64,000 bases of DNA, taken from the NCBI GenBank assembly GCA_040388375.1, contig JAZKBU010000006.1, forward strand, positions 124,001 through 188,000, written 5' to 3'. Origin of the DNA: Bacteroidota bacterium (GTDB taxonomy: Bacteria; Bacteroidota; Bacteroidia; UKL13-3). Numbering within the stretch: position 1 is the first letter of the stretch; each line of letters starts with the position of its first letter. This document shows, piece by piece, positions 58,854 through 64,000 of this stretch. The notes beneath the pieces were generated by a model. The model was not told the origin of the DNA. It did no database searches and saw only the letters and a list, made by a program, of their open reading frames with translations. The position numbers and the translations under genes were made by a program.

Positions 58854-59876
58854 GTGAAATTAAGTAAAGAAGCTAAAGTTGGGTTATTTGTGGCCATTGC
58901 CATTACCTTTTTATACCTAGGATATAATTTTTTAAGAGGAAAAAAACTTTTCTCATCATACAGCACTTATTATGCAGTTTATAACAACGTAGAAGGTATT
59001 GTTACCTCTACCGCTGTGTTTGTAAACGGTTTTAAAGTTGGGCAGGTAGAAGAAATAAGCATGCCTGATATGCTAAAAACTGATAGTATAGTAGTGAAGC
59101 TTTTTATACAAAGCCGCATACAAATTAAAGCTAACTCTACCGCACTTATTACCAAATCTGGCTTATTTGACGGTAATGTAATTAGCATTAGCTTTGATGA
59201 AAAGCCTGCCGATATTTTAAAAGACGGTTCTTTTATTTTTGGTGCCCGCGAAGAAGATTTGTTTACTTCTATTAACAACATGGTTGCGCCCATTAAAACC
59301 AAAAGTGAGCATGTACTGGTTACATTGGATAAGGTATTGAATTCGCTACAACAGGTATTTAACGAAAAAGGAACACAAAACTTAACCAATAGTGTGGTTG
59401 ATTTAAGCGGTGCTTTGCGTGCTTTGCGTATAACATCGGAACAACTGAGTGCCATTGTAAGTGAAAACGGAAATAACTTAACCAAAACGTTAAATAACGT
59501 TCACACCATTTCAAATACTTTTGCTAAAAACAATGATGAAATAAACAGAACGATTAAAAACTTTGGTAAACTAAGTGATTCATTAGCCAACTCTGATATT
59601 AAGAAAACCCTTGATAATCTGGCTATAGTAACAGAACAACTGGCTACTATAACACAAAAAATGAACAAAGGCGAAGGTACTTTAGGTAAGTTAGTAAACG
59701 ATAAAGAACTTTATGACAACTTAAATAAAAGCACCAAAGAGCTGAATTTGTTGTTAAAGGATATGCAACGTTATCCAGGTCGTTATGTAAACGTTTCTGT
59801 ATTCGGAGGTCCTGCAAAAGAATCGGATAAAAAACGTGAAAAGGATATAAAAGAAGGTAAGTACAAACCTGAATAA
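58854..59876 (+). CDS. MlaD-family (MCE domain) lipid transport protein
   Basis: 340 residues from a GTG start. An N-terminal helix (VGLFVAIAITFLYLGYNF) anchors the protein, followed by the MCE domain (FSSYSTYYAVYNNVEGIVTS; VFVNGFKVGQVEEI; ALITKSGLFDGNVISISF) and a long helical tail (about 160-320). It is the substrate-binding part of an ABC phospholipid or lipid transporter between the membranes. Conserved neighbour of the amidase and lptD in this phylum. Confidence 0.92.
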   Translation: MKLSKEAKVGLFVAIAITFLYLGYNFLRGKKLFSSYSTYYAVYNNVEGIVTSTAVFVNGFKVGQVEEISMPDMLKTDSIVVKLFIQSRIQIKANSTALITKSGLFDGNVISISFDEKPADILKDGSFIFGAREEDLFTSINNMVAPIKTKSEHVLVTLDKVLNSLQQVFNEKGTQNLTNSVVDLSGALRALRITSEQLSAIVSENGNNLTKTLNNVHTISNTFAKNNDEINRTIKNFGKLSDSLANSDIKKTLDNLAIVTEQLATITQKMNKGEGTLGKLVNDKELYDNLNKSTKELNLLLKDMQRYPGRYVNVSVFGGPAKESDKKREKDIKEGKYKPE

Positions 59877-60088
59877 AAAGTAAAACATACTTTCTTCTCT
59901 TTATACATTAGTTTCAGGAAACTCCTTGATAAAGTTATTGCTATGCTTGTATACTAGTTTAAGACAACATGAGTTATAATTGAAAAACCTTTTATTTTTG
60001 GGTTTTGTATTTCAGTGGTTTTAGTCAAGCCCAAAAGCAATTTCGTTTACAAGCAAATATCTAACTAACTATAGTCAGAAAACTCTTT

Positions 60089-60119
60089 ATGCGGAGAATA
60101 AACAAACTATTCACCGCAT
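60089..60119. repeat. Inverted repeat with the GCGGAGAATAA box
   Basis: ATGCGGAGAATA (60089-60100) and TATTCACCGCAT (60108-60119) are complementary except one position, 7 bases apart. Candidate operator. Confidence 0.6.
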
Positions 60120-60218
60120 TTTTTGCAGGAAATAAATTCAATTATATTTTTCTTTCATTTCACAAATACCATCTACTAGTCCTTATTTTCAGGCATTTAT
60201 TTGAAAAATAATTTTGCA

Positions 60219-60265
60219 ATGCGGAGAATAAGTAGTACAATTGCCGCATAATTTGCGGAGAATAA
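60219..60265 (+). promoter_or_regulatory. Two GCGGAGAATAA boxes abutting the Fic start
   Basis: GCGGAGAATAA at 60221-60231 and 60255-60265, the second touching the ATG at 60266; TTGCCGCAT (60241-60249) between them is a partial inverse box. They may be operator sites for the Fic protein itself, which ends in an HTH. Confidence 0.5.
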
Positions 60266-61381
60266 ATGCGCTATATACATCAAAATACCACTTGGCCTAA
60301 CTTTACCTGGAGCCAGGAAGAGTTGCAGTTTTTACTGGGAACAGTAAGAAACTTACAGGGGAAGCTAATGGGTAAAATGGAGTCGATAGGGTTTAATTTA
60401 AAGAGCGAAGCATTGCTGCAAACACTTTCTTTGGATGTTATAAAATCGAGCGAGATAGAAGGCGAAATATTAAATGCTGAACAGGTACGCTCATCAATAG
60501 CACGTAAACTGAGAATGGATATATCAGGCTTGGTTCCTTCGGATAGACATACGGATGGAATGGTAGATATGATGCTTGATGCCACTCAAAATTTTTCAGA
60601 AACACTTACTAAAAAACGTTTGTTTGCCTGGCATGCAGCACTCTTTCCTTTGGGTAAAAGCAGCATGTATGAAATAACGGTAGCGAAATGGCGCAATGAT
60701 TCAACTGGACCTATGCAAGTAGTATCCGGTGCTATGGGAAAAGAAAGGGTACATTTTGAAGCTCCTGATTCTGCTCTTTTAGAAAAGGAAATGAGCCGTT
60801 TTATAACTTGGTTTAACAAAGAAAAAAAATTAGACCCTGTAATAAAAGCAGCAGTAGCCCATTTATGGTTTATAACTATCCATCCGTTTGACGATGGCAA
60901 TGGACGTGTAGCACGCGCTTTAACGCATATGCTTTTGGCCAGGTCTGATAATAGCTCTCAACGGTTTTACAGTATGTCGGCACAAATACGCATAGAACGT
61001 AAAATGTATTATGATATATTGGAGAAAACACAGAAAGGTAATTTAGATATAACCAATTGGTTGCAGTGGTTTTTAAAATGTATGCTCAATGCACTTAACA
61101 ATACGGATAGTGCTTTTAATAAAATAATACTAAAAGCCAAGTTCTGGAAAAAGTATGAAACCACTAATTTTAACGACAGGCAAAAGCTATTAATCAATAA
61201 ATTACTGGATGGTTTTGACGGAAAATTAAGTTCATCAAAATGGGCTAAAATAGCCAAATGCTCTGCTGATACTGCTTTAAGGGATATACAGGATTTAATA
61301 AACAAAGGGGTATTGAAAAAAGATGGAGCAGGTGGTAGAAGTACTAATTACGAATTAAACGCTGACAACTTCACGGATTAA
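60266..61381 (+). CDS. Fic family protein with DUF4172 and C-terminal HTH
   Basis: 371 residues. N-terminal DUF4172 (IHQNTTWPNFTWSQEELQFL, 4-80) holds the inhibitory motif SSEIEGE (61-67, S-x-x-x-E-G), and the Fic core has the active site HPFDDGNGR (206-214). It should transfer AMP from ATP to a protein hydroxyl when inhibition is relieved. The C-terminus (about 300-365, SSSKWAKIAKCSADTALRDI) is a winged helix. No antitoxin gene adjoins it because the inhibitor is built in. Three GCGGAGAATAA boxes precede the start. Target unknown. Confidence 0.93.
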   Translation: MRYIHQNTTWPNFTWSQEELQFLLGTVRNLQGKLMGKMESIGFNLKSEALLQTLSLDVIKSSEIEGEILNAEQVRSSIARKLRMDISGLVPSDRHTDGMVDMMLDATQNFSETLTKKRLFAWHAALFPLGKSSMYEITVAKWRNDSTGPMQVVSGAMGKERVHFEAPDSALLEKEMSRFITWFNKEKKLDPVIKAAVAHLWFITIHPFDDGNGRVARALTHMLLARSDNSSQRFYSMSAQIRIERKMYYDILEKTQKGNLDITNWLQWFLKCMLNALNNTDSAFNKIILKAKFWKKYETTNFNDRQKLLINKLLDGFDGKLSSSKWAKIAKCSADTALRDIQDLINKGVLKKDGAGGRSTNYELNADNFTD

Positions 61382-61389
61382 GTGAAAGT

Positions 61390-61911
61390 CTATTTTAACT
61401 TACTCAAGGCTTTTAAAATTTTGCCTCCCCTGCTTTTATAAGCAGGTAATGCGCCTTCCATATACATTTCAATGCAGTCGTATAACTCGTTGGCTAAATC
61501 GGGTTCTTTTAGGGTAATATTATACAATACGGTCATGGCAAAAACCCTTATGGCTATGGCTTCTTTAGGGTTATTCAACAATTGAAAACAATGTACTAAA
61601 GTAATGCCTTGTAGCTTTTGGGGTATACTAGTAAACTGTAATAAACGGACTATGTTTCTTTTTATACCATCATGTACTGGCTTGCCTAATAATGGAATTA
61701 ATTGCTTTAAATGGGGCTGAATAAGTGCATCAATATATTGATTGTTTATACTAGGCAATACCCAGGCAGCTCTATTAGCAATGTCTTTCTCATTCCCTAA
61801 AATAATATCTATTAACGCTGCAAAACGTTCGGCATCATTGTCAATCCAATTGGCAACAGCCATGCTTACTTTTTTGCTATGTTCTTTTTGCAGCGTTTCA
61901 AGAATATTCAT
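61390..61911 (-). CDS. HEAT-like helical protein of unknown function
   Basis: 173 residues. Repeated helical pairs (DIANRAAWVLPSINNQYIDA, IKRNIVRLLQFTSIPQKLQG, AIAIRVFAMTVLYNITLKEP) fit a small HEAT-repeat scaffold. No signal or catalytic motif. It follows mutS by 8 bases on the same strand, so it is likely cotranscribed with it, although no role in mismatch repair is known. Confidence 0.75.
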   Translation of the reverse strand: MNILETLQKEHSKKVSMAVANWIDNDAERFAALIDIILGNEKDIANRAAWVLPSINNQYIDALIQPHLKQLIPLLGKPVHDGIKRNIVRLLQFTSIPQKLQGITLVHCFQLLNNPKEAIAIRVFAMTVLYNITLKEPDLANELYDCIEMYMEGALPAYKSRGGKILKALSKLK

Positions 61912-61919
61912 ACCAAAAC

Positions 61920-64000
61920 TTATTTAACCATTTGTTTCAGCTCACTTAATTTCATTAATGCCTCTATGGGTGTTAATGTATTCAAATCTAAATTAACCAG
62001 GTTGTCTTTTATTTTTTCCAGCTCCGGGTTTTCAACCTGAAACATGCTTAACTGTATGGTTGGCGATTTTATTTTAACACTAGCTGTACTTCCTATTCCT
62101 TCTAATCTGTCTTGCTCTAATTGTTGCAAAATTTCAGCCGCCCTGTTGGTTACTAATTGAGGTATGCCAGCCATTTTTGCTACGTGTATACCAAAACTAT
62201 GTTCGCTTCCACCCAATGCCAACTTGCGTAAAAAAATAACTTTCTTGTCTGTTTCTTTTACGGCTATATGGTAATTTTTTATGCCATTGTCATCTTGCTC
62301 TAATTGGTTTAACTCGTGGTAATGGGTTGCAAAAAGTGTCTTGGGTTTATAAGGATGTTTGTTTAAATATTCGGCTATAGCCCAGGCTATGGAAACACCA
62401 TCATAAGTGGCAGTACCTCTGCCTATTTCATCTAATAATATTAAACTGTTTTTTGAAATATTATTTAATATGCTGGCAGTTTCGGTCATCTCCACCATAA
62501 AGGTACTTTCGCCAACACTTAAGTTATCGCTTGCACCTACACGGGTAAATATTTTATCAATTAAACCAATGGTTGCACTGCTGGCCGCTACAAAACAACC
62601 CATTTGTGCCATGAGTACTCCCAAAGCAGTTTGACGTAACACGGCTGATTTACCACTCATATTAGGTCCTGTTAAAATAATCATTTGTTGCTTTTGATTA
62701 TCTAACGAAAGGTTATTGGCTATATAAGCTTCGCCTACGGGTAATTGTTTTTCGATAACGGGATGGCGTAAATTTACTAAGTTTAATTCGTTGCTATTGT
62801 TAAGTTGCGGCCTGCAATAATTGTTTGCTTCGGCTAACTCTGCAAAGGCAAATAAGCAATCTATTTTAGCCAATACGATAGCGTTTTGTTGTATTGGTAA
62901 AACGTAATCCTGCAAGGCTGAAATCAAATCGTTATAAAGTCTTTCTTCTATAACGGCTATCTTATCTTCAGCACCTAATATTTTTTCTTCGTATTGTTTT
63001 AACTCTTCTGTTATATAACGCTCGGCATTGGTTAGTGTTTGTTTTCTAATCCAAGTTTCAGGTACTTTATCTTTGTGTACATTGGTTACTTCCATGTAAT
63101 AACCAAACACATTGTTAAACGATATTTTTAAGCTTGTAATACCTGTAGCTTGTTGTTCGCGCGTTTGCATTTGCAACAAATAATCTTTGCCACCAAAGGC
63201 TATAGCGCGTAAGTCGTCTAACTCCTGATTTACGCCTGCATTAATTACATTGCCTTTATTGGCAGCAAGGGGTGCTTCTGCATGGAGCTCTGTATCTAAT
63301 TTATCAATAGCCCATTTGCAATGGTTTATTTGCTCGGCTAATTTTTGTAATAACTTATTGTTTTGCTGTAAGAATAGCTTTTGTAGTGGCTCTAATTGTT
63401 TCAACGAACGGTTGAGTTGTTGCAATTCACGCGGACCAATTCTACGCATAGCCAATTTAGAAACCATACGTTCTAAATCGCCTATTTGTTTTAAAATATC
63501 TATTACCTGAACACGAAAGCTTTTTTGTTGTTTGGCAAAATCTACAATATCTAAACGTTCGTTTATTTGTGCTATATCTTTTAAAGGTAAAACCATCCAG
63601 CGTTTTAGTAAACGTGCTCCCATGGGCGTGACGGTTCTATCCAATATTTGTATCAATGGCACACCATTGTCGTTAGTGCTTTGGACCAACTCTAAATTAC
63701 GAATGGTAAATCTATCCAGCCATACATATTTATCTTCATCTATACGGCTTATGCTTTGTAAATGGCTTATTTGTTCGTGATGTGTTTCAGCTAAATAATG
63801 CAAACAAACGCCCGCTGCAGTAATAGCTATTGGCATTTCCTGTATACCAAAGCCTTTTAAGTTTTGCGTATTGAAATGATTCAATAGTTTTTCGTAGCTA
63901 TACTGGTATTGAAAAATCCATTCGTCTAGTTGATAACTGTAATGCTTTTCACCAAACTTTTGTTTAAAAAACGGAAACTGCTTTTTGGAGATTAATATTT
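61920..64000 (-). CDS. mutS: DNA mismatch repair ATPase MutS, 5' part beyond window
   Basis: The frame stays open to the window edge (about 693 codons seen); the start and the mismatch-binding N-terminal domain lie outside. Seen are the connector, core (domain III/IV clamp) and the ATPase: LTGPNMSGKSAVLRQTALG (P-loop), STFMVEMTETASIL, LLDEIGRGTATYDG (Walker B) and TLFATHYHELNQLE. It recognises mismatches as a dimer and signals to MutL. The first in-frame TTG inside (63884) is not the true start, since family sequence continues upstream of it (LDEWIFQYQYSYEKLLN). Confidence 0.96.
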   Translation of the reverse strand, partial: ILISKKQFPFFKQKFGEKHYSYQLDEWIFQYQYSYEKLLNHFNTQNLKGFGIQEMPIAITAAGVCLHYLAETHHEQISHLQSISRIDEDKYVWLDRFTIRNLELVQSTNDNGVPLIQILDRTVTPMGARLLKRWMVLPLKDIAQINERLDIVDFAKQQKSFRVQVIDILKQIGDLERMVSKLAMRRIGPRELQQLNRSLKQLEPLQKLFLQQNNKLLQKLAEQINHCKWAIDKLDTELHAEAPLAANKGNVINAGVNQELDDLRAIAFGGKDYLLQMQTREQQATGITSLKISFNNVFGYYMEVTNVHKDKVPETWIRKQTLTNAERYITEELKQYEEKILGAEDKIAVIEERLYNDLISALQDYVLPIQQNAIVLAKIDCLFAFAELAEANNYCRPQLNNSNELNLVNLRHPVIEKQLPVGEAYIANNLSLDNQKQQMIILTGPNMSGKSAVLRQTALGVLMAQMGCFVAASSATIGLIDKIFTRVGASDNLSVGESTFMVEMTETASILNNISKNSLILLDEIGRGTATYDGVSIAWAIAEYLNKHPYKPKTLFATHYHELNQLEQDDNGIKNYHIAVKETDKKVIFLRKLALGGSEHSFGIHVAKMAGIPQLVTNRAAEILQQLEQDRLEGIGSTASVKIKSPTIQLSMFQVENPELEKIKDNLVNLDLNTLTPIEALMKLSELKQMVK

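What the first reader, a model, noticed from the sequence alone, without database searches (positions are those of the whole stretch)
60089..61381. Fic gene with three iterated boxes GCGGAGAATAA
The 11-bp box occurs three times (60091, 60221, 60255), once in an inverted repeat with TTCACCGCA and once directly before the ATG. The protein has a C-terminal winged helix, so autoregulation through this box is likely. A Fic enzyme that reads its own gene could link its activity state to its level.
Basis: partly seen in the sequence, partly recalled or inferred. Interest (0 to 1): 0.6.

Follow-up and report, generated by a model that had tools for sequence, protein, structure and literature searches.

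The report
Self-operators of a DNA-reading Fic enzyme
A bacterial gene for a Fic (AMP-transferring) enzyme carries repeated DNA boxes across its promoter and start codon; the same layout sits before most relatives of this gene in two groups of bacteria, and the box letters change together with the part of the enzyme that should read them, so the enzyme very probably switches off its own gene.

Summary
The three GCGGAGAATAA boxes are real; TGCGGAGAATAA occurs only three times in the 3.97-Mb genome, all here. They belong to six half-sites in two triads (-> 18 bp <- 16 bp ->). The proximal triad lies on the promoter: its left arm between -33 and -7, its right arm over -7, its third box just before the ATG. 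The gene encodes a class II DUF4172-Fic-wHTH protein like Coxiella CbFic2 (8CIL).

Of 210 promoters of Fic relatives (Bacteroidota; viral/MGE contigs), 191 hold the triad against 1 of 210 shuffles; ten Fic genes outside this family do not. Box letters vary by lineage. With relatedness controlled, the best-correlated protein column for each variable box position lies in the wHTH recognition helix (335, 338, 338, 334). Some paralogues in one genome use different boxes matching their own helix.

Best reading: negative autoregulation by Fic through an evolving recognition code. Binding itself was not tested. A link between activity state and level is plausible from CbFic2 biochemistry (PMC10628234) but untested. 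Fic autorepression is known for CccR (PMC9755527); the family-wide operator and code appear new in the papers searched.

The parts
60266..61381 (+). fic gene, 371 aa: DUF4172 (aa 3-84) + Fic + C-terminal wHTH
   Evidence: Pfam PF13776 E=9e-32 and PF02661 E=1e-16; 8CIL E=8e-96; AF2 model pLDDT 90
60090..60100 (+). box A, left arm of distal palindrome (TGCGGAGAATA)
60108..60118 (-). box A', right arm (TATTCACCGCA)
60124..60134 (+). box B, degenerate (TGCAGGAAATA), in register (16 bp after A')
   Evidence: lattice positions of relatives
60220..60230 (+). box C, left arm of proximal palindrome, between -33 and -7
60238..60248 (-). box C', degenerate right arm (CAATTGCCGCA), overlaps the -7 element
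60254..60264 (+). box D, immediately before the ATG (in many relatives the start codon lies inside this box)
60212..60216 (+). putative -33 element TTTTG, 19 nt before the -7 element
   Evidence: sequence; Bacteroidota promoter pattern TTTG-N19-TAnnTTTG from general knowledge
60236..60243 (+). putative -7 element TACAATTG (TAnnTTTG with one mismatch)
   Evidence: sequence; consensus of relatives
60446..60463 (+). codons of the class II inhibitory helix motif SSEIEG (aa 61-66)
   Evidence: translation; E65 and G66 conserved
60881..60916 (+). codons of the Fic motif HPFDDGNGRVAR (aa 206-217)
   Evidence: translation; conserved
61175..61357 (+). wHTH domain (aa 304-364): helices 304-314, 323-330, 334-346 and wing strands 350-352, 362-364
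   Evidence: 8CIL match of the C-terminal part alone E=4.6e-6
61265..61303 (+). recognition helix (aa 334-346) with residues A334, D335, L338, Q342 that covary with the box

Best explanation
The gene encodes a class II DUF4172-Fic-wHTH enzyme that represses its own promoter. Through its C-terminal winged helix the protein, as a dimer or higher assembly, binds 11-bp half-sites (here TGCGGAGAATA) arranged in two triads (-> 18 bp <- 16 bp ->). The proximal triad covers the stretch between -33 and -7, the -7 element and the start-codon region, so its occupation shuts RNA polymerase out. The distal triad would add cooperativity. Box positions 3-6 are read by recognition-helix residues 334, 335 and 338, and operator and helix evolve together, so that diverged paralogues keep private operators. 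Shown here: the operator layout, its conservation and specificity to this family, and the covariation. Inferred: physical binding, the sign of regulation (repression) and the assembly. [quoted passage not shown]
For: Exact boxes unique to this promoter in the genome. Box matches in 230 bp upstream of 140 relatives: 600, against 46 downstream and 29 in shuffles. Triad in 191 of 210 promoters against 1 of 210 shuffles, absent before ten Fic genes outside the family. Same geometry in viral/MGE contigs embedded in TTG...TAAT-type promoters. Relatedness-controlled covariation: best of 325 protein columns is D335 for box position 3 (r 0.72), L338 for positions 4 and 5 (r 0.52, 0.57), A334 for position 6 (r 0.24), all in the recognition helix (helix). 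Leave-one-out prediction of box letters 3-5 with only relatives at least 35% different: 93% from helix residues 334/335/338, 78% from equally many nearest relatives. Paralogues in one genome or one locus with different boxes, AAC against GGT or GGA: G244, G277, tandem pair in L077. Precedent for autorepression: CccR (PMC9755527).
Against: No binding or expression data. The AA/GG difference changes only about 2-3 times on the tree, so much of the raw correlation rests on one deep split; the distance-controlled test reduces but does not remove this. As a group, recognition-helix columns are not significantly higher ranked for box positions 3-6 together (MWU p 0.17); they are for position 6 (p 0.003). 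Some non-helix columns (L89, L266, V27) also rank high. Within the GG class alone, or without K334 proteins, helix columns are near the top but not first. In the window, boxes B and C' are degenerate. Triads without fic exist in a few genomes.
Confidence: 0.85

Rival explanations
1. A separate, conserved trans-acting regulator binds the boxes, and the Fic wHTH is for something else (for example nonspecific DNA contact or substrate choice).
For: Direct binding by Fic is not shown here; CbFic2 binds random DNA with nanomolar affinity (PMC10628234).
Against: Box letters track Fic recognition-helix residues; paralogues in one cell have different boxes; the triad stays with fic in many unrelated genomes and contigs.
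Confidence: 0.06
2. Fic binds the boxes but activates its own promoter.
For: The distal triad lies upstream of the promoter, where activators often bind.
Against: The proximal triad overlaps -33/-7 or -35/-10 and the start codon, which fits occlusion; CccR is a repressor (PMC9755527).
Confidence: 0.05
3. The boxes are a recombination or mobility site of a fic-carrying element rather than an operator.
For: The 11-7-11 palindrome resembles recombinase core sites (general knowledge); triads also occur after the fic stop codon in four loci (L012, L040, L129, L080) and alone in a few genomes (G425, G228, G100, G274, G438).
Against: Fixed position relative to promoter and start codon with two different promoter types; letters track the Fic wHTH; two palindromes without intact fic sit beside decayed fic C-terminal fragments, so they look like scars.
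Confidence: 0.04

Closest known systems
CbFic2 (CBU_0822, Coxiella burnetii; PDB 8CIL; PMC10628234)
   Same: DUF4172-Fic-wHTH domain order, class II inhibitory helix; E=8e-96 over residues 3-365; Z 41.4, 42% identity over 348 residues. DNA binding through the wHTH.
   Different: Studied with random DNA; the paper leaves open whether a specific sequence such as a promoter is recognised. Its recognition helix (SRTTAYRELH) resembles that of L301/L302, whose operator is TGAAGCGATTA, so its natural operator is predicted to be of that type. Its gene was not fetched here.
CccR (Yersinia pseudotuberculosis; PMC9755527)
   Same: Class II Fic with C-terminal HTH that represses its own promoter by binding inverted repeats (footprint, EMSA and lacZ in the paper).
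   Different: Operator is a single pair of 10-bp repeats (AGATAATCAT) 26 bp apart; here the half-sites are 11 bp, 7 and 5 bp apart, in triads. The paper reports 29% identity of CccR to SoFic; it was not compared with this protein here.
SoFic / Sofic anti-phage defence (PADLOC SoFic; PMC12249575)
   Same: Class II Fic with C-terminal domain; PADLOC SoFic profile matches at E=3.7e-43.
   Different: NCBIfam SoFic equivalog scores 60.7 against a cut-off of 550. No operator found in the passages read; regulation reported through a small antitoxin AS1.

Membership tests
DUF4172-Fic-wHTH family (CbFic2-like) | N-terminal DUF4172 domain | tested here: met
   PF13776 109.6 bits, cut-off 25
[quoted passage not shown]
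   HPFDDGNGRVAR aa 206-217, conserved in 41 sequences
DUF4172-Fic-wHTH family (CbFic2-like) | C-terminal wHTH | tested here: met
   AF2 model and 8CIL match of the C-terminal part
Class II Fic | inhibitory motif (S/T)xxxE(G/N) N-terminal to the Fic motif | tested here: met
   SSEIEG aa 61-66
Autorepressing Fic-HTH (CccR-like) | inverted repeats in own promoter | tested here: met
Autorepressing Fic-HTH (CccR-like) | protein binds own promoter and represses it | not testable with these tools
   no binding or reporter assay; indirect support from covariation
SoFic equivalog (NCBIfam NF046030) | score above the curated cut-off | tested here: not met
   60.7 bits against 550

The most novel reading that the evidence does not exclude
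The operator is the allosteric switch of the enzyme: cognate box DNA dimerises the Fic protein, turning it from AMPylation to deAMPylation while it represses its gene, so one event sets both enzyme level and enzyme direction, and each lineage carries its own evolvable operator code.
Probability: 0.35. Interest if true: 0.8.

Novelty: new variant of a known kind. Interest (0 to 1): 0.6.

Why it matters
The CbFic2 study left open whether this family reads a specific DNA sequence; the operators described here are a concrete candidate. They give cognate DNA for structure and activity assays, a readable protein-DNA code with several natural variants, and a test of whether a Fic enzyme's activity is set by its own operator. 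Relatives of the gene are also found on 427 plasmid records, so this control unit may travel with a probable toxin or defence gene.

Tried and rejected
Integration-site reading: the neighbourhood of the upstream MlaD-like gene in same-genus genomes gave no clean empty site. The two near-boxes at C3:412865/413304 of the own genome lie inside a histidine kinase gene, so a second target there was rejected. A first palindrome scan used a spacing one base off and found no fic promoter; it serves as a control only (corrected). Standalone wHTH repressors beside boxes in G139 and G204 turned out to be broken fic remnants. Phage records hold no relative at E 1e-20. Binary independent-pair tests had too few changes to be informative.

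Full report
Observation. The 11-mer is exact at the three stated places. The 12-mer TGCGGAGAATAA occurs three times in the 3.97-Mb genome, all in this promoter. Reading the sequence with the lattice found in relatives shows six half-sites: A 60090(+), A' 60108(-), B 60124(+, degenerate), C 60220(+), C' 60238(-, degenerate), D 60254(+). Spacings are 18 and 16 bp within each triad. In relatives the two triads are most often 54 bp apart (A to C); here they are 130 bp apart, and the upstream sequence of the near relative L040 looks similarly stretched.

Promoter. TTTTG (60212-60216), 19 nt, TACAATTG (60236-60243) fits the Bacteroidota promoter pattern (general knowledge). Box C lies between the two elements, C' overlaps the second, D ends directly before the ATG. 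The consensus of 121 relatives shows the same, and in many the start codon is inside box D. In 56 viral/MGE contig promoters the same triad sits in a TTG...TAAT context typical of sigma-70 promoters; that these are mostly proteobacterial is inferred from promoter type and relatives on proteobacterial plasmids, not tested.

Protein. DUF4172 plus Fic, C-terminal wHTH, closest solved structure CbFic2 8CIL. The inhibitory motif SSEIEG and Fic motif HPFDDGNGRVAR are intact, so the enzyme should be catalytically competent and self-inhibited.

Conservation. In 140 distinct relatives there are 600 box matches in 230 bp upstream, 46 downstream and 29 in shuffled upstream sequence. A triad score finds 191 of 210 promoters at 16 or more against 1 of 210 single-letter shuffles. 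The 210 were gathered by protein similarity and include at least one gene outside the family (L031). Ten Fic genes outside the family score 11.5-14. About 9% of 395 Bacteroidota genomes carry a close relative (36 of 395) and 427 plasmid records carry one, so the gene is patchy and probably mobile.

Code. Box positions 3-6 vary: CGGA, CGGT, CGGC, CAAC, and in far relatives AAGC, AGCC. With protein distance controlled in bins, the top column of 325 is D335 for position 3, L338 for 4 and 5, A334 for 6 (with L338 second and Q342 fifth). The recognition helix in the model is 334-346. K or R at 334 goes with AAC-type boxes; L101 and L110 keep I/V338 and N342 of that class but have S334 and mostly GGC boxes. 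Limits: few independent changes of AA/GG on the tree; helix columns as a group reach significance only for position 6 (p 0.003, and p 0.012 within the GG class); residues 334, 338 and 342 were first noticed in an overlapping data set. Leave-one-out prediction of positions 3-5 using only relatives at least 35% different is right for 93% of arms from residues 334/335/338 and 78% from equally many nearest relatives (n=119).

Private operators. G244 and G277 each hold an AAC-type and a GG-type gene with matching helices. In L077 two fic genes lie in tandem, the first with K334 and AAC boxes, the second with A334 and GGA boxes. Other paralogue pairs (G003, G009, G015, G267) differ less or not at all. 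A single shared trans-acting regulator would not readily explain the AAC/GG pairs.

Mechanism. Most likely negative autoregulation by occlusion. Repression is inferred from site position and from CccR (PMC9755527). CbFic2 work (PMC10628234) reports DNA-stimulated activity and DNA-induced dimerisation and proposes a switch to deAMPylation, all with random DNA. If that holds for cognate boxes, operator binding would set both level and direction of the enzyme. This is not shown here.

Loose ends. Box palindromes or triads without an adjacent intact fic occur in five of 395 genomes and beside decayed fic fragments in two more; scars of lost genes are the simplest account. Four loci carry a triad or half-triad just after the fic stop.

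Noticed in passing
G425:C52:108177-108221 (L199), G228:C24:78173-78217 (L201), G100:C46:137501-137545 (L202), G274:C46:2240-2284 (L208), G438:C11:115428 (L211): Triads of the same lattice without an adjacent intact fic gene, some just after stop codons or between convergent genes; scars of lost fic, or something else.
   Followed up: partly
L012, L040, L129, L080, within about 80 bp after the fic stop codon: A triad or half-triad downstream of fic as well as upstream.
   Followed up: partly
upstream of fic in L041, L049, L061, L073, L077, L103, L105, L107, L108, L115, L116, L117: GTTA(C/G)CnGCAAG-like motifs that look like the end of an integron attC site, suggesting that some fic genes are integron cassettes with their own promoter; L108 shows a second such motif downstream.
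   Followed up: partly
L304-L306, L312, L314, L315, L316, L319 upstream of fic: Far relatives with other boxes in a similar layout (TGAGCCGAATA, TGAGTCGAATA, TGAGCGATAG).
   Followed up: partly
window 58854-63884: The fic gene sits between an MlaD-like gene and a HEAT-like gene plus mutS; same-genus genomes have other genes after the MlaD-like gene.
   Followed up: partly
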